Shown here: positions 1-20,146 of the stretch, one piece after another
Numbering within the stretch: the first letter of the stretch is position 1
How the letters are laid out: each line of letters begins with the position of its first letter
Source of the DNA: a virus
IMG/VR virus record: IMGVR_UViG_3300020408_000056
Location: 1 to 20,146 of that record
Strand: one strand, 5' to 3'
DNA length: 20,146 bases
Translations under genes and position numbers: made by a program
Notes under the pieces: generated by a model
The model's database searches: none
What the model was told of the DNA's origin: nothing
The model's input: the letters and a program-made list of their open reading frames with translations, nothing else

Positions 1-171
1 ATCGTTGAATCACTAGATCTAAGTGATTTGAGAGACTTCAACCTCCGTCAGAAGTCTGCTCTCACAACAGTCATGAAGGAGGCACAGTTGAATGACAATG
101 GTGCCAATAACCAAAGTTGCGTTGTGATGGAGGTAGATCGCGTAAAAAAGCAGACGACCTTGACACTCTGA
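1..171 (+). CDS. 5'-truncated zero-frame part of the adenine methyltransferase gene
   Basis: Frame 1 is open from the window edge to TGA at 169-171 (56 residues, beginning IVESLDLSDL and ending DRVKKQTTLTL); its start lies upstream of the window. No domain can be recognised in this short piece. I read it as the amino-terminal frame of the methyltransferase that continues in the -1 frame, because a slippery heptamer at 144-150 joins the two frames and the downstream frame has no good start codon of its own. Without a frameshift, translation ends about seven codons after the slip site. Alternatives are a separate upstream gene overlapping the methyltransferase, or a homopolymer sequencing error in the run of six A. 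Confidence 0.6.
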   Translation: MVESLDLSDLRDFNLRQKSALTTVMKEAQLNDNGANNQSCVVMEVDRVKKQTTLTL

Positions 172-1523
172 AGAAGCAGACTGTCAAGGCACTTCTGGAA
201 TCGATTCCTCTGACCATGTTCTACATTATCCGTAGTGGTCAGAACGTGTACTCAATCAATGATGTGATCGGATCCCATATCTATCCATCTGTTACTGGTG
301 ACAATGAGGGTATTCTCTCTGAAGTTATCTCAAAGAATCCTCACAGTGTAGAACTCCTGACTCGTCGGATTGGTTTGGTGACGAACAGCATCCAGAAGAG
401 CATGAGGGAGTCAGTCTCCAAGACTATTGATAGTCTGTCGGTCTCATCTGAGATTCAGAGATCGATTCCTGCACAGTTGCTTGACAATATGATCAATGAC
501 TGTCAAGATATGAGCAGCACCTACATGTTCGGTGATCCCAGTGGTTCTCACTCTGCTCGACTCCTGGAACATGGTATTGATCCCAACAGTCTCACTGTTT
601 GGGAGAGTTGCGATAGTCATCGCAGTCGTGTAGGATATATTGATAATCAGATCAACGTCGTTGCCGCCCATCCAGACATGAAGTTCACCGCCATCCTTGC
701 CAATCCTCCATATCAGGATCCGACCAAGAAGGCACGGAACAATAAACTGTGGACCAAGGTGGTTGAGCAGCATCTGGATATGGTTGCTCCTGGTGGTGAC
801 ATGTGTGAGGTCACTCCTGCATCTGTGTTGGGTAACACGGGTAAGGGTAAGAAGTTTATGCAGTTGTTCTCTACGATCTACAACCTCAAACTCATTGACT
901 ACACTGCTGATGATTACTTCACTGAGGGTGTAGATATCTGTCGCTGGCATCTGGTGAATGAACCCTATCAGGGCAAGACTACTGTGATTACTCATGATGG
1001 AACCTTCTCCTGGGATCTCCGTGATGGTCTGCCTGTCTTTGGTGATGCTGCTCTCAAGCACTCTATTCTGGAGAAGATTGCAAACTCAAACCATTCTCGT
1101 ATTCCTTTGAAGATTGGTCAGGAGATTGCCAATGAGGATTATGTTCCTGATGGTAAGTATGAGGTATTTAAGACAGGCAACAAAGTTGCTCGTACAAATG
1201 TGCTTCCTACCACTGGTGATGTTTTGAAGTTCATCGTACCGTTCTCCAGCACATATAAGAAGAGGTTTGTCTCTAATGGATTTGTGGGTATGCTTAATGT
1301 GTGGTGTCCTATTGCTTCGGAAGAAGAAGGTTCGCGTCTTAGTGCAATCTTTGACAATCCGATCATTCAGTTTTTTGTGGAAAATTATAAAAGGACTTCG
1401 GGATTTACTCCTGCTATTAAGAATGCGGAAGTACCTGACATCACGAACTATGAGAACCTACATGAGCAATTTGGTTTTACAGCAGAAGAACTGAACTACC
1501 TGGAGAGATCCAATGTCATCTAA
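117..1523 (+). CDS. N6-adenine (amino) DNA methyltransferase, NPPY type
   Basis: This is probably a SAM-dependent DNA methyltransferase of the gamma/Eco57I-like amino group. The frame reads 468 residues from a TTG at 117. The catalytic motif IV (ILANPPYQ) sits at about residues 196-199, followed by a motif seen in this family (PGGDMCEVTPASVLG, about 225-240). A poor motif-I-like stretch, GDPSGS, lies some 55 residues before NPPY. The carboxy-terminal half is a likely target-recognition region. The start is unclear: the TTG has no ribosome site, and the first ATG in frame is at 216. I think translation enters at 150 by -1 frameshifting from the frame ending at 171. The stop overlaps the next gene by 11 bases. 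The enzyme class is fairly sure, the target site unknown. Confidence 0.75.
   Translation: MRCDGGRSRKKADDLDTLKKQTVKALLESIPLTMFYIIRSGQNVYSINDVIGSHIYPSVTGDNEGILSEVISKNPHSVELLTRRIGLVTNSIQKSMRESVSKTIDSLSVSSEIQRSIPAQLLDNMINDCQDMSSTYMFGDPSGSHSARLLEHGIDPNSLTVWESCDSHRSRVGYIDNQINVVAAHPDMKFTAILANPPYQDPTKKARNNKLWTKVVEQHLDMVAPGGDMCEVTPASVLGNTGKGKKFMQLFSTIYNLKLIDYTADDYFTEGVDICRWHLVNEPYQGKTTVITHDGTFSWDLRDGLPVFGDAALKHSILEKIANSNHSRIPLKIGQEIANEDYVPDGKYEVFKTGNKVARTNVLPTTGDVLKFIVPFSSTYKKRFVSNGFVGMLNVWCPIASEEEGSRLSAIFDNPIIQFFVENYKRTSGFTPAIKNAEVPDITNYENLHEQFGFTAEELNYLERSNVI
129..189 (+). promoter_or_regulatory. Candidate -1 programmed ribosomal frameshift signal (dnaX-like)
   Basis: Four parts are seen in the expected order. 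A Shine-Dalgarno-like GGAGG lies at 129-133 with no start codon placed to use it. The slippery heptamer A AAA AAG lies at 144-150, in register with the zero frame (GTA AAA AAG), 10 nt after GGAGG. A 7-nt spacer (151-157) follows. The hairpin then pairs 158-165 with 182-189 (8 bp), has one C-C mismatch (166/181), pairs 167-170 with 177-180 (4 bp) and closes with loop AAGAAG. A -1 slip moves ribosomes from frame 1 into the frame open to 1523, giving ...DRVKK-ADDLDTLKK.... This matches the known E. coli dnaX arrangement (upstream SD, A AAA AAG, hairpin). Function is inferred. Confidence 0.7.
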
Positions 1524-1929
1524 GAATCGTCATAATCAACAGCATGGGTCTACTATTGAACGCTCTGATGAGCGGATCAGTCAGACTGCGGAGGTCTTCA
1601 CTCCTCTTGCTCTGGTAGAACAGATGATTCGAGAGATTCCTGTGTCTCAACTTGAGGATCCTGAGTCTAAGTTTATGGACAACTGTGCTGGTAGTGGTAA
1701 CTTCCTTGTTTGTATGTGTGATGCACTGCAGGAATATCACAGCAGAGATCACATTATCAACAACATGCTCTATGCTGTGGAGTTGATGGAAGATAACCAT
1801 AAAGAGATGTGCAGGAGACTTGGTGTTCCTGTAGATCACCCACACTTTGTCTGTGCAGATGCACTTCAGTATCATTACAGGTTTGATGGAACCACAGGAC
1901 CCATCACAGTAGATCAATTCCTGGTATAA
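1513..1929 (+). CDS. Short N6-DNA-methylase-like protein with SAM-binding motifs only
   Basis: The 138-residue protein resembles the amino-terminal half of the N-6 DNA methylase family (HsdM/type II). SQTAEVFTP is at about residues 22-30, SAM-binding motif I (DNCAGSGNF) at 56-64, an acidic motif II region (YAVELMEDNHK) follows, and a motif III-like CADAL comes near residue 116. It stops before the place where the catalytic NPPF/Y motif would come, so it cannot be a complete methyltransferase. ATG 1513 has GGAGA just upstream and overlaps the NPPY-bearing gene by 11 bases. It may be a truncated paralogue, or it may supply the SAM site to the upstream protein as a split enzyme; the second idea is inference. 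Confidence 0.7.
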   Translation: MSSKNRHNQQHGSTIERSDERISQTAEVFTPLALVEQMIREIPVSQLEDPESKFMDNCAGSGNFLVCMCDALQEYHSRDHIINNMLYAVELMEDNHKEMCRRLGVPVDHPHFVCADALQYHYRFDGTTGPITVDQFLV

Positions 1930-1936
1930 TATTCGT

Positions 1937-3190
1937 ATGCATATGAGTTCAATGCAACTTCGTCCCCACCAGGCAGAAGCACTTGATGTCATGGACACTA
2001 AGTCCAAAGGCACTGTGGTGGTCCCTACTGGTGGGGGCAAAACATTTATTGCCATTGCTGATGCAATGCGTGAGATGAACAAGATGGAGGGTTGTAAGAC
2101 TATTGTTGTAGTTGCTCCTCGTCTCTTGCTTGCTCGTCAACTGTCTAAAGAGTTTACCCAGCACATCAATAATGCTGCTGTCCTTCATGTCCACTCTGGT
2201 GGTCATGATCTTCCATACCATTGCACCACTGATCCCAGCATGATCAGTAAGTGGGATTATCACACTACTTGTCATAAGTTAATTTTTACTACGTATCATT
2301 CGCTTCATCGTATTCAAGAATCTAAAATAGTTGTAGACTGCATCTATTTTGATGAAGCGCACAACTCCGTCAAAAAGAACTTCTTTGGTGCTACCAGGCA
2401 TTACGCTTCTGCTGCTCGCCGCTGCTATTTCTTCACTGCTACTCCTAAGTATTCTGCCACTGTTAAAAAACATGGTATGAATGACAGTGTGTTTGGTGGG
2501 ATTATCTACAATGTTCCTGCCCCACGCTTGATCAAGAATGGTTCTATTCTTCCCCCGAAGATCAATGCAATCACAATTCCTGCTGTTCGTGAGAAGAGTG
2601 TTGATGAGGCAGCACTGCGGGATTGTATGACTCTGTTGAAGACTCTTCGTAGTGAAGATCACATGCAGAAGGTCTTGATTGCTGCTCCTAATACTACTGT
2701 GTTGGGCAACATGATTATTAAAACCACCTTCCTTCAAGAGGCAAGGAAGATGGGGTATGATATTTTGTGGATAACTAGTAGGCAGGGTGCATTCCACAAC
2801 TACAACAAAATTAGTCGTGAGAAGTTCTTCTCTCTTGTTCGTGAGTATGGTGATCAACCTGACAAAAAGTTCATTGTTATTCATTACTCTATTCTGAGTG
2901 AGGGTATCTCTGTTCCTGGTCTCACATCATTAGTTCTGATGCGTCAGATGAATGTTATTGAGATGTGTCAGTCTGTCGGTCGCGTTCTCCGTCTACATCT
3001 TGATGATGTCAAGAGAATACAACAAGGACAACTTACTCCAGGTAAACTGGAAGACTACAAGAAGTCCTTTGGACTTGTTCATGTCCCTGTCTACAGCAAT
3101 GTTGGCATCTCTACAGTCAAGCGTCTGCAGGATGTAGTAAATACAGTGTTTGTAGAGGGACAACCAGCAATTAGTACAGTAAAACGATGA
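1937..3190 (+). CDS. SF2 DEAH-box helicase/translocase (ResIII-like)
   Basis: A 417-residue superfamily 2 helicase with a complete motor. A Q-motif-like region (LRPHQAEAL) is at 8-16, Walker A VPTGGGKT at 29-36, motif Ia around APRLLLARQL, Walker B DEAH at 139-142, motif III FTATP about 30 residues later, and motif VI QSVGRVLR at 345-352. It is related to the Res subunit of type III and other restriction systems and to phage UvsW-like helicases, but no nuclease domain is visible. It begins 7 bases after the methylase fragment and ends in a 4-base overlap (ATGA) with the next gene, so it is co-translated with the methylase block. Its role could be replication, recombination or a reduced restriction-modification machine. 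Confidence 0.85.
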   Translation: MHMSSMQLRPHQAEALDVMDTKSKGTVVVPTGGGKTFIAIADAMREMNKMEGCKTIVVVAPRLLLARQLSKEFTQHINNAAVLHVHSGGHDLPYHCTTDPSMISKWDYHTTCHKLIFTTYHSLHRIQESKIVVDCIYFDEAHNSVKKNFFGATRHYASAARRCYFFTATPKYSATVKKHGMNDSVFGGIIYNVPAPRLIKNGSILPPKINAITIPAVREKSVDEAALRDCMTLLKTLRSEDHMQKVLIAAPNTTVLGNMIIKTTFLQEARKMGYDILWITSRQGAFHNYNKISREKFFSLVREYGDQPDKKFIVIHYSILSEGISVPGLTSLVLMRQMNVIEMCQSVGRVLRLHLDDVKRIQQGQLTPGKLEDYKKSFGLVHVPVYSNVGISTVKRLQDVVNTVFVEGQPAISTVKR

Positions 3191-11768: not shown

Positions 11769-11908
11769 CACAATACAACTTTGAATATACTACGCTTGAT
11801 GAGCGTATTGAACAGTTAGAGACTCGTGTGCGTGAATTGGAAAATATCATTGACAAAATCGCACCGCCCAAATATAATCTTGAAAACTATTCCCTTGGAG
11901 ACAAATGA
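11765..11908 (+). CDS. Small coiled-coil protein (47 aa)
   Basis: MTQYNFEYTTLDERIEQLET is followed by a heptad stretch (LDERIEQLETRVRELENIIDKI) typical of a short coiled coil, then PPKYNLENYSLGDK. ATGA overlaps join it to the 26-residue frame before and to talC after, so it is translated with talC. Its GGAG near the end is talC's ribosome site. Confidence 0.6.
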   Translation: MTQYNFEYTTLDERIEQLETRVRELENIIDKIAPPKYNLENYSLGDK

Positions 11909-12564
11909 AGATCTTCCTTGACACTGCAGATACTGAAGAAGTCCGTAAATATTTTGCATCGGGACTTGTTGATGGTGTCACTACCAACCCTTCCCTGATT
12001 CGCAAGGCGGGTCGTGATCCTGAGGAAGTATATCAGGAGATGATTGATATTGGTGTGCCTGATGTCAGCATGGAAGTTGTTGGCACAGTGGGTGAAATGT
12101 ATAACGATGGTGTTCGCCTTGCTGAGAAGTTTGGTACTGCTGCCACTATCAAACTCCCCTGCACCCCAGATGGTCTTATGGTCTGTAAAGATTTGACCAA
12201 ACTGGGTATCAAAACTAATGTAACTCTTGTCTTCTCTGTTGCACAGGCAGTGATGGCAATGAAGGCAGGTGCAACCTATCTGTCTCCTTTTGTTGGACGT
12301 TGCAATGACAACTCCTTCAGTGGTGTTGAATTGGTTCGTGCTATCGCAACTTGTCGTTCTGTCCATGGCATGAAGACTGAAGTGCTTGCTGCATCTCTGC
12401 GTGATGCACATCATGTCTCTCGCTGCTTCATGTATGGTTCTGACATTGTTACCATGCCAACCAAAGTGTTCAACGCAATGTATGACAGTGTGTTGACTCG
12501 TGAGGGACTTGCTATCTTCCAACGTGATTATGAAGCATCTCTTGAGGCATTGAACGATGTATGA
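11905..12564 (+). CDS. talC: Transaldolase, TalC type
   Basis: The 219-residue (beta/alpha)8 enzyme of the short transaldolase/fructose-6-phosphate aldolase family acts in the pentose phosphate pathway. It shows FLDTADTEEVRKY at the start, GVTTNPSLI at 24-32, the Schiff-base lysine K83 in TIKLPCTPDGL, NVTLVFSVAQA, and YLSPFVGR. Length is normal for the family. TalC is a known auxiliary metabolic gene of cyanophages, where it helps shift host carbon flow to pentoses and NADPH; gnd at the end of this window acts in the same pathway. GGAG precedes ATG 11905. The gene overlaps the next one by 8 bases. Confidence 0.95.
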   Translation: MKIFLDTADTEEVRKYFASGLVDGVTTNPSLIRKAGRDPEEVYQEMIDIGVPDVSMEVVGTVGEMYNDGVRLAEKFGTAATIKLPCTPDGLMVCKDLTKLGIKTNVTLVFSVAQAVMAMKAGATYLSPFVGRCNDNSFSGVELVRAIATCRSVHGMKTEVLAASLRDAHHVSRCFMYGSDIVTMPTKVFNAMYDSVLTREGLAIFQRDYEASLEALNDV

Positions 12565-19233: not shown

Positions 19234-19259
19234 ACATACATTGACAACAGTTGGCACTT

Positions 19260-20146
19260 ATGAAAGTTGGAATGATTGGACTTGGACGGATGGGAGAGGG
19301 TATGTCCCGCCGTCTTATCAAAAACGGACACGAAGTACATGGGTATCGCAACAACTATAAAAAATCTGAAGAGCAATTTGAGAAGGGTTATATCAGTGGA
19401 TGTACCACTTCTATTGAAAATCTTGTTCAAGTAGTTCATCAGCAGGATGGTCTCGTTGGCAGTTCTCCTGGTGTATTCATGATGGTTGTGCCAGCAGAGA
19501 CCGTAGAGGACACTATCGATGAGCTATTACAGTTTTGTGTGGAAGGAGATATTATTATTGATCATGGCAATAGCAATTTTAAGGACTCTCGCAGGAGGGC
19601 AGAACGGTTATCTAAACTTGGCATCGCGTATCTTGACTGCGGTACTAGTGGTGGTGTTTACGGTCTGGAGCGTGGATACTGCCTTATGGTTGGTGGTGCA
19701 GATCATGCAGTATCCGCCTGCCGTCCAATCTTTGACGCACTCGCACCAGGTATTGACGCTGCCCCACGAACAAGTAACGGAGATTATATCCAATACCCTG
19801 AAGAGCATGGATGGATCCTTGCTGGCGGTCCTGGAGCAGGTCACTTCGTAAAGATGGTGCATAATGGTATCGAGTATGGTATCATGCAGGCATATGCTGA
19901 AGGATTTAACATCCTACACGAAGCAAATGCAGGTTCCAAGTATGTCAAAGCAGGAGATGCAGAAGTTGCCCCGATGGACAACCCTGCCGATTATCAGTAC
20001 GACATTGACGTTGCTAAGGTTGCTGAGTGTTGGCGTCGTGGTAGCGTGGTTGGCAGTTGGTTGCTTGACCTTACCGCTACTGTATTACGCAGCGATAGAG
20101 AGCTTAGCAAGTTCGATGGGGGAGTATCAGACAGTGGTGAGGGTCG
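19260..20146 (+). CDS. gnd: 6-phosphogluconate dehydrogenase, decarboxylating (3' end beyond window)
   Basis: The first 295 codons of a 6-phosphogluconate dehydrogenase, which oxidises 6-phosphogluconate to ribulose 5-phosphate and makes NADPH or NADH. It shows the GxGxxG dinucleotide site IGLGRMG near residues 6-12, DHGNSNFKDSRRR, the substrate motif CGTSGGVYGLERG, and GPGAGHFVKMVHNGIEYG with catalytic lysine K198 and N202. The sequence is open to the window edge with no frameshift. It resembles the shorter GndA/YqeC-like type known in cyanophages and cyanobacteria. Together with talC it points to phage control of the host pentose phosphate pathway. It has its own promoter. Confidence 0.95.
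   Translation, partial: MKVGMIGLGRMGEGMSRRLIKNGHEVHGYRNNYKKSEEQFEKGYISGCTTSIENLVQVVHQQDGLVGSSPGVFMMVVPAETVEDTIDELLQFCVEGDIIIDHGNSNFKDSRRRAERLSKLGIAYLDCGTSGGVYGLERGYCLMVGGADHAVSACRPIFDALAPGIDAAPRTSNGDYIQYPEEHGWILAGGPGAGHFVKMVHNGIEYGIMQAYAEGFNILHEANAGSKYVKAGDAEVAPMDNPADYQYDIDVAKVAECWRRGSVVGSWLLDLTATVLRSDRELSKFDGGVSDSGEG

What the first reader, a model, noticed from the sequence alone, without database searches (positions are those of the whole stretch)
129..189. Complete dnaX-like -1 frameshift signal in a phage DNA methyltransferase gene
The sequence shows GGAGG, exactly 10 nt, A AAA AAG in zero-frame register, a 7-nt spacer and a 12-bp hairpin with one mismatch and a 6-base loop. The upstream frame closes at TGA 169-171, while the -1 frame is open for the NPPY methyltransferase, which has no good start of its own. 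E. coli dnaX uses the same layout. Here it would set the ratio of a short protein to a full methyltransferase, giving a fixed low dose of the enzyme. I do not know of this control being described for a cyanophage methyltransferase.
Basis: partly seen in the sequence, partly recalled or inferred. Interest (0 to 1): 0.85.

Follow-up and report, generated by a model that had tools for sequence, protein, structure and literature searches.

The report
Ribosome frameshift site in phage enzyme
In a group of viruses of photosynthetic bacteria, one gene carries a conserved signal that probably makes some ribosomes slip back by one base, so that the gene yields both a short DNA-motor protein and a long motor-plus-DNA-methylating protein, and evolution has repeatedly swapped which of the two needs the slip.

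Summary
A_AAA_AAG (144-150), with GGAGG 10 nt upstream and a hairpin 7 nt downstream, joins a helicase-like ORF (cut by the contig start) to an Eco57I-like methyltransferase in the -1 frame. I found 24 other contigs with this junction; with the window, 25 share A_AAA_AAG. Eleven are split as here, the methyltransferase exactly in -1. Fourteen are one continuous frame, and in all fourteen the -1 frame stops one codon after the slip, as in E. coli dnaX. The form changes at least three times on the tree. Slip codons and the upstream GAG are synonymously frozen, and the hairpin shows compensatory changes. Five close relatives without an in-phase heptamer are continuous; four of them were folded there and show no such hairpin. 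Sequencing error is excluded in practice. Best reading: programmed -1 ribosomal frameshifting yields a ~590-aa helicase-like protein and a ~1,040-aa helicase-methyltransferase fusion, whose predicted fold best matches a Type ISP restriction-modification enzyme. No translation was measured. A new member of a known kind, with striking reversible polarity.

The parts
1..171 (+). 3' end of the zero-frame ORF (helicase-like N-terminal module), cut by the contig start; stop TGA 169-171
   Evidence: matches the helicase profile at positions 535-582; complete in relatives such as L002, L003 and L036
129..133 (+). Shine-Dalgarno-like GGAGG, 10 nt before the heptamer
   Evidence: GGAG in 24 of 25 heptamer-bearing junctions, GAGG in the other, L038
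144..150 (+). slippery heptamer A_AAA_AAG, zero-frame register
   Evidence: shared by 25 of the 30 contigs of the closer family
158..189 (+). 3' stimulatory hairpin: arms 158-170 and 177-189, loop 171-176, 7-nt spacer
150..1523 (+). -1-frame ORF from the codon after the slip: helical, coupler-like segment, then Eco57I-like N6 methyltransferase (NPPY); stop 1521-1523
1513..1929 (+). conserved neighbour: 138-aa N6-methyltransferase-like protein whose start overlaps the methyltransferase's end (not part of the signal)

Best explanation
Programmed -1 ribosomal frameshifting. Ribosomes translating the helicase-like ORF reach A_AAA_AAG. The GGAGG pairs with the 16S tail and the downstream hairpin resists unwinding; both hold the ribosome while tRNA-Lys(UUU) re-pairs one base back on AAA_AAA. 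Ribosomes that stay in frame stop 6 codons later and release a ~590-aa helicase-like protein. Ribosomes that slip make a ~1,040-aa helicase-coupler-methyltransferase fusion. In continuous relatives the same signal works the other way round: the slipped ribosome stops after one codon and makes the short protein. A small indel just 3' of the heptamer swaps the roles without losing either product. Shown: anatomy, conservation, covariation, frame relations, selection in the main clade. Inferred: that slippage happens, its rate, and that both proteins have a function.
For: All 25 heptamer-bearing junctions have it in zero-frame register; 11 are split with the methyltransferase exactly -1 (457 codons after the slip), 14 continuous with a -1 stop after exactly one codon. 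With the slip, the product aligns without a gap at the site for the main clade and L038. At least three form changes by parsimony. Over 17 non-redundant sequences the 12-codon window starting 6 codons before AAG has the lowest synonymous ratio, 0.39, of 1060 (other widths in the Against line). Of 21 invariant-Lys columns only 3 are codon-invariant, two being the slip codons; the rare CGG (6% of Arg) and GCG (7% of Ala) are used before the GAG. Hairpin: 92.2% of 204 cells paired, both-side changes in 6 of 12 pairs, slid controls 20-42% paired; four relatives without an in-phase heptamer do not fold there (z -0.23 to +1.16, two with the same stretch). In the split main clade, codons 1-22 after the slip, before any ATG, show 7-8 synonymous differences on ~17 sites against 2 nonsynonymous on ~49, and L006, L038, L058 and L181 have no ATG/GTG/TTG upstream in that frame. 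In four picocyanobacterial genomes only tRNA-Lys(UUU) was found. The slip lies in a low-confidence linker, residues 548-584 of L008.
Against: No protein or ribosome data, and none seen in an isolated phage: MA01 and S-CAM7 0910CC49, the isolates whose junction I looked at, lack the in-phase heptamer. In the L058/L059/L060 group nonsynonymous changes outnumber synonymous ones (dN/dS 0.36-0.87), so function there is less certain, and parts are recombinant. Between distant split members the post-slip codons differ by 16-21 nonsynonymous changes. L010, L059 and L060 have weaker hairpins (z -1.5 to -1.8). The synonymous dip is lowest only at 12 codons: at 9 it is second to a stretch 534 codons upstream (0.30 against 0.26), and at 15, 20 and 25 other stretches are lower (site 0.51-0.59 against 0.42-0.52); in the main clade alone it is never the lowest (0.48 against 0.35 at 12) and at 15 and 20 is not among the ten lowest. 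In the hairpin test the number of pair types is not beyond shuffles (62 of 500 reach it). One distant continuous relative, L071, has an in-phase A_AAA_AAG near the junction without GGAG and with a weak fold (-4.7 kcal/mol), so the heptamer alone can occur there without the rest.
Confidence: 0.88

Rival explanations
1. Transcriptional slippage at the A6 run makes a minority of mRNAs with an extra A, which join the frames without ribosomal slipping.
For: A run of six A is present in all 25 heptamer-bearing junctions.
Against: Polymerase slippage needs no reading phase, GGAG or hairpin, yet these are kept, the hairpin with covariation. The review passage I saw describes bacterial slippage on runs of nine A or T (PMC5009743).
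Confidence: 0.05
2. The methyltransferase is a separate gene started internally (ATG at codon 23 after the slip) or by coupled re-initiation; the slip is irrelevant.
For: S-CAM7-type relatives encode the two modules as separate, overlapping genes. An ATG lies 23 codons after the slip in the main split clade and L038.
Against: The ATG has no Shine-Dalgarno-like sequence in the 14 bases shown before it and, in the main clade, lies after codons under purifying selection. S-CAM7 splits after the coupler-like segment, not before it. Internal initiation explains neither the heptamer nor the -1 stops of the continuous forms.
Confidence: 0.03
3. A frameshift mutation that inactivated the gene in the split forms.
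For: High dN/dS in the L058/L059/L060 group.
Against: Split members of the window clade keep low dN/dS after the slip (0.08-0.20 in six pairs); an open 457-codon frame in all 11 split contigs, always at the same site and in the same direction.
Confidence: 0.03
4. Sequencing or assembly error at the homopolymer.
For: Only assembled contigs are available; no reads could be mapped.
Against: The split form occurs in ten other contigs whose names carry ten different dataset numbers, and the continuous forms have the same six A: the frame difference lies 3' of the run, not in its length.
Confidence: 0.01

Closest known systems
E. coli dnaX (tau/gamma) -1 frameshift cassette
   Same: A_AAA_AAG in the zero frame, Shine-Dalgarno-like element within 9-14 nt, 3' stem-loop, -1 stop after one codon in the continuous forms, short and long products sharing the N-terminus (dnaX features from PMC5009743 passages).
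   Different: Not a DNA polymerase subunit gene: a phage helicase-methyltransferase. Here 11 of 25 carry the reversed polarity. Efficiency unknown.
Bacterial dnaX genes with reversed roles (candidate: the Chlorobium case named in PMC5009743)
   Same: Long product made by the shift, zero-frame stop near the site; [quoted passage not shown]
   Different: Here both polarities occur among close relatives of one phage gene family, with at least three changes on the tree.
IS3-family -1 frameshift signals (IS911 and others; PMC4066793 passages)
   Same: Same heptamer class with Shine-Dalgarno-like element and hairpin.
   Different: No transposase; gene family and products differ.
Type ISP restriction-modification enzymes (LlaBIII, PDB 4xqk)
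   Same: Best Foldseek match of the predicted fusion: SF2 helicase, a helical segment, then an N6 methyltransferase in one chain.
   Different: TM-score to the query only 0.28; no Mrr nuclease found; expression apparently split by frameshifting.

Membership tests
Bacterial dnaX-type -1 programmed frameshift signal | X_XXY_YYZ heptamer in zero-frame register | tested here: met
   window and the 24 other contigs of the set
Bacterial dnaX-type -1 programmed frameshift signal | Shine-Dalgarno-like element 9-14 nt upstream | tested here: met
   GGAG in 24 of 25, GAGG in L038; 9-11 nt between it and the heptamer (for L005, L006, L007 and L036 the script picked another complement and the GGAG, 11 nt away, is read from the alignment); range from PMC5009743
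Bacterial dnaX-type -1 programmed frameshift signal | conserved 3' stem-loop close to the slip site | tested here: met
   spacer 7 nt in split forms, 8 (11 in L059/L060) in continuous forms
Bacterial dnaX-type -1 programmed frameshift signal | two products sharing the N-terminus, measured shift efficiency | not testable with these tools
   no translation data; only frame geometry
dnaX gene family (clamp loader subunit) | homology of the coding sequence to dnaX | tested here: not met
   Pfam, PHROGs and NCBIfam give helicase-like and methyltransferase families and weak chance hits, no clamp-loader family
Type ISP restriction-modification enzyme | SF2 helicase-like ATPase and N6 methyltransferase in one chain | tested here: met
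   phrog_16 and phrog_3689, PF07669, folds; Pfam helicase families stay below their cut-offs
Type ISP restriction-modification enzyme | N-terminal Mrr-family nuclease | tested here: inconclusive
   no Mrr hit in Pfam; weak GIY-YIG similarity in 3 of 37 members (best E 0.014, below cut-off), not supported by fold search
Type ISP restriction-modification enzyme | coupler domain | tested here: inconclusive
   a helical segment follows the slip; not compared on its own
Type ISP restriction-modification enzyme | target-recognition domain | not tested
   not examined
Eco57I-like methyltransferase (PF07669) | profile match above the curated cut-off, NPPY motif | tested here: met
   28 bits against 25.3; NPPY

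The most novel reading that the evidence does not exclude
A frameshift module with reversible polarity that sets the ratio of motor-only to motor-plus-methyltransferase subunits in a phage-encoded Type ISP-like enzyme. Because both products are made either way, small indels just after the heptamer have swapped which one needs the slip at least three times. The signal was retuned to match: GGAGGT in 6 of 11 split forms (two lineages: window/L002/L003/L013 and L058/L181) and in 0 of 14 continuous ones, with a shorter spacer and, in L058 against L059, a stronger hairpin. If the N-terminal segment is a nuclease, as its weak GIY-YIG-like motifs hint, the ratio would be of restriction to modification subunits.
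Probability: 0.45. Interest if true: 0.78.

Novelty: new member of a known kind. Interest (0 to 1): 0.62.

Why it matters
It would be a natural experiment in frameshift evolution: close relatives that differ by one base in whether the long protein needs the slip. It lets one test directly whether selection acts on having both products rather than on one of them, and whether stimulators are retuned after a polarity swap. It also suggests that a phage controls subunit stoichiometry of a restriction-modification-like enzyme by decoding. In the listings and passages I saw there was no report of this for a cyanophage methyltransferase; subscription papers and preprints were not searched.

Tried and rejected
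Homopolymer error: rejected, because both forms have six A and the split form recurs in ten other contigs. Conservation of the heptamer as a mere Lys-Lys motif: rejected, because only 3 of 21 invariant-Lys columns are codon-invariant and two are these. Frameshifting in the whole family: rejected. MA01, L114, L121, L122 and L126 are continuous without an in-phase heptamer (L126 has AAAAAAG in another register), and the four of them that I folded show no such hairpin. Of 36 distinct helicase-end sequences outside the 24 loci, one, L071, has an in-phase A_AAA_AAG within 40 codons, without GGAG, with a weak fold and with a -1 stop after 8 codons.

N-terminal nuclease: the first ~115 residues carry a GIY-YIG-like pattern (the motif reading is mine, from recall), but Pfam is below its cut-off (3 of 37 members, best E 0.014) and neither fold search of the N-terminal model lists a GIY-YIG protein among the rows shown; left open. 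A sequence search of the Protein Data Bank with the full-length profile found nothing at E 0.01; the N-terminal profile gave one chance-like hit, E 1.4. Cellular relatives: a scan of species genomes with the helicase profile matched 41 stretches and confirmed none. In one search the L018 control stretch was about 12 codons too far 3'; one search repeats it in register. One search's tRNA pattern was too strict and was replaced; one match with a CTT anticodon-like string (L342) was not accepted as a tRNA by ARAGORN.

Searches for prior reports. I saw passages of PMC5009743, PMC3711429, PMC10885494, PMC4066793 and PMC1564403, and only search listings of the others. PMC10885494 says that methyltransferases are among genes known to contain a frameshift, without naming the system in the passages seen.

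Full report
What is in the window. The window is a 20,146-base virus record that begins inside a gene. The described elements are present exactly: GGAGG 129-133, ten bases, A_AAA_AAG 144-150 in zero-frame register, seven bases, and a 12-pair hairpin with one mismatch and a six-base loop at 158-189; the zero frame stops at 169-171 and the -1 frame runs to 1523. GGAG-N11-AAAAAAG occurs once against 0.01 expected, while AAAAAAG alone is common. The hairpin has z -3.65. The -1 frame is an Eco57I-like N6 methyltransferase. Among isolates the best matches are Synechococcus phages MA01, MA10, ME01 and MC09 at 43.5% identity; of the 35 matching records I fetched three, MA01 and two S-CAM7 records.

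Relatives. Four family scans of viral contigs and one DNA pattern scan gave many loci, most repeating the same contigs. Counting distinct contigs with a methyltransferase profile score above 600 bits, I have 30: the window, 28 other viral contigs and MA01. Twenty-five of the 30 carry an in-phase A_AAA_AAG at the junction; MA01, L114, L121, L122 and L126 do not and are continuous. A wider look at 36 further distinct helicase ends (those five included, L121 as a copy of L114) found one more in-phase heptamer, in L071, without GGAG and with a weak fold. The rest of the analysis uses the 25, of which 17 were kept for rates (L003 stands for the window and L013, L006 for L005, L009 for L014, L011 for L012, L015 and L016, L058 for L181).

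Two forms, one signal. In 11 of 25 (window, L002, L003, L005, L006, L007, L013, L036, L038, L058, L181) the methyltransferase lies exactly in the -1 frame, with 457 codons after the slip; the zero frame stops after 6 codons, or 0 in L038. In 14 of 25 (L004, L008-L012, L014-L017, L023, L031, L059, L060) helicase and methyltransferase are one frame of 1,048-1,085 codons counted from the previous stop, and the -1 frame stops after exactly one codon, through GTC TGA, GTC TAA or GAT TGA. The continuous forms thus have the dnaX layout and the split forms its mirror image. The difference is a one-base indel just 3' of the heptamer in the main clade, and four bases between L058 and L059, not a change in the A run. 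Counting the re-read base, the slipped product aligns without gaps at the site with the main-clade continuous proteins.

History. On a nucleotide tree of 21 of the 25 sequences, whole gene without the junction, parsimony needs three changes of form. In the methyltransferase-only protein tree L004 (continuous) nests among split forms, and L060's N-terminus resembles that of L038, so recombination has occurred and the count is approximate. L114, L122 and L126 carry a related methyltransferase behind a more divergent helicase part and have neither the in-phase heptamer nor the hairpin.

Selection on the signal. Over 17 sequences, the 12-codon window starting six codons before AAG has the lowest synonymous ratio, 0.39, of 1060 windows. 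This depends on width: at 9 codons the site is second (0.30 against 0.26 for a stretch 534 codons upstream), and at 15, 20 and 25 codons other stretches are lower (site 0.51, 0.56, 0.59; lowest 0.42, 0.52, 0.50). In the main clade alone it is low (0.48 at 12) but never the lowest, and at 15 and 20 codons it is not among the ten lowest. What is telling is which codons are frozen: GAG at -6, a codon ending in A at -2, AAA and AAG, while the codons between vary. Only 3 of 21 invariant-Lys columns and 3 of 14 invariant-Glu columns are codon-invariant. The residue before GAG changes between Arg, Met and Ala, yet its codon ends in G (CGG, ATG, GCG; AGA in L038), although CGG and GCG are 6% and 7% of their families' codons. 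Sixteen of 17 genes have no other in-phase A_AAA_AAG; L059 has two more.

The hairpin. On an alignment of 18 of the 25 sequences (17 distinct rows), 92.2% of 204 cells pair, against 20-42% when the partner is slid, and 6 of 12 pairs show both-side changes. No shuffle of 500 reaches the observed number of such cells, 2 reach the number of such pairs, and 62 reach the number of pair types; relatedness inflates such counts. Single folds give z from -5.1 to -1.5 in 13 heptamer-bearing junctions and -0.23 to +1.16 in four relatives without the in-phase heptamer, two of them with the same stretch. Split forms have a 7-nt spacer, continuous ones 8 (11 in L059/L060).

Why the slip rather than a restart. 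In the split main clade the first in-frame ATG is codon 23 after the slip. Codons 1-22 differ by 7-8 synonymous changes on about 17 sites but only 2 nonsynonymous on about 49 in four pairs, all across the same two subgroups and so not independent; this suggests that they are translated in the -1 frame. Four split contigs have no ATG, GTG or TTG before the slip in that frame; the other seven have one TTG without an evident Shine-Dalgarno sequence. Between distant split groups the same codons differ by 16-21 nonsynonymous changes, so this argument rests on the main clade. L058, L059 and L060 show more nonsynonymous than synonymous differences.

Can the host slip? In Synechococcus WH7803, RCC307 and SynAce01 and a Cyanobium, a tRNA pattern search followed by ARAGORN finds one tRNA-Lys each, anticodon TTT, and none with CTT; the pattern could miss an unusual gene. 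The host of this phage is inferred from Synechococcus phage relatives. PMC5009743 (passages) states that E. [quoted passage not shown] PMC4066793 (passages) lists A_AAA_AAG among the most efficient heptamers in E. coli.

What the proteins are. The upstream ORF matches phrog_22930 and a phage helicase family, phrog_16; Pfam helicase families stay below their cut-offs. The prediction for the continuous L008 protein (mean pLDDT 75.5, pTM 0.60) puts the slip (Lys 582-583) in a low-confidence linker, 548-584, just before a helical segment and the methyltransferase. The best Foldseek match is the Type ISP enzyme LlaBIII (E 7.9e-18, but TM-score 0.28 to the query and rmsd 17, so domains match better than their arrangement); the helicase part matches RadD and other SF2 motors at Z about 24. 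S-CAM7 0910CC49 encodes the same modules as two overlapping genes, split after the helical segment. So the modules exist fused, as neighbours, or apparently joined by frameshifting. Whether the N-terminal 115 residues are a nuclease is open.

Verdict. Programmed -1 frameshifting is by far the best explanation, though untested at the bench. The 'fixed low dose' reading should be replaced by 'two products at a ratio set by the signal', probably not low. Kind known, gene new, with an unusually clear record of polarity swapping.

Noticed in passing
window 1513-1929: A 138-aa protein with N6-methyltransferase motif I but no NPPY seen in its sequence (phrog_4376). A relative was found in 28 of 29 loci searched, S-CAM7 and MA01 included; it overlaps the methyltransferase's end in the 18 heptamer-bearing loci with a hit and lies further on in some others. 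L060, the miss, ends nearby. A half methyltransferase kept beside a whole one.
   Followed up: partly
L058, L059, L060: Nonsynonymous codon differences outnumber synonymous ones over much of the gene (159 against 57 in L058-L059), with signs of recombination at the N-terminus; fast protein change or relaxed constraint.
   Followed up: partly
L008:3237-3614 and 36 relatives: N-terminal ~115 residues share a GIY-YIG-like pattern (IY, G-x-G-[QE]-T, RH, K, invariant D and E), below Pfam's cut-off and without fold support.
   Followed up: partly
L071:6638-6644: A distant continuous relative has an in-phase A_AAA_AAG near the helicase end without GGAG and with a weak fold; -1 stop after 8 codons. 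Chance, or an independent start or remnant of such a signal.
   Followed up: partly
window 1937-3190: A second SF2 helicase gene (phrog_16) lies just downstream; similar sequence was found in 22 of the 29 loci searched (in L066 upstream and partial).
   Followed up: no
window 11905-12564 and 19251-20144: Transaldolase-like and 6-phosphogluconate-dehydrogenase-like ORFs (named from recall of their sequences), as in cyanophages.
   Followed up: no
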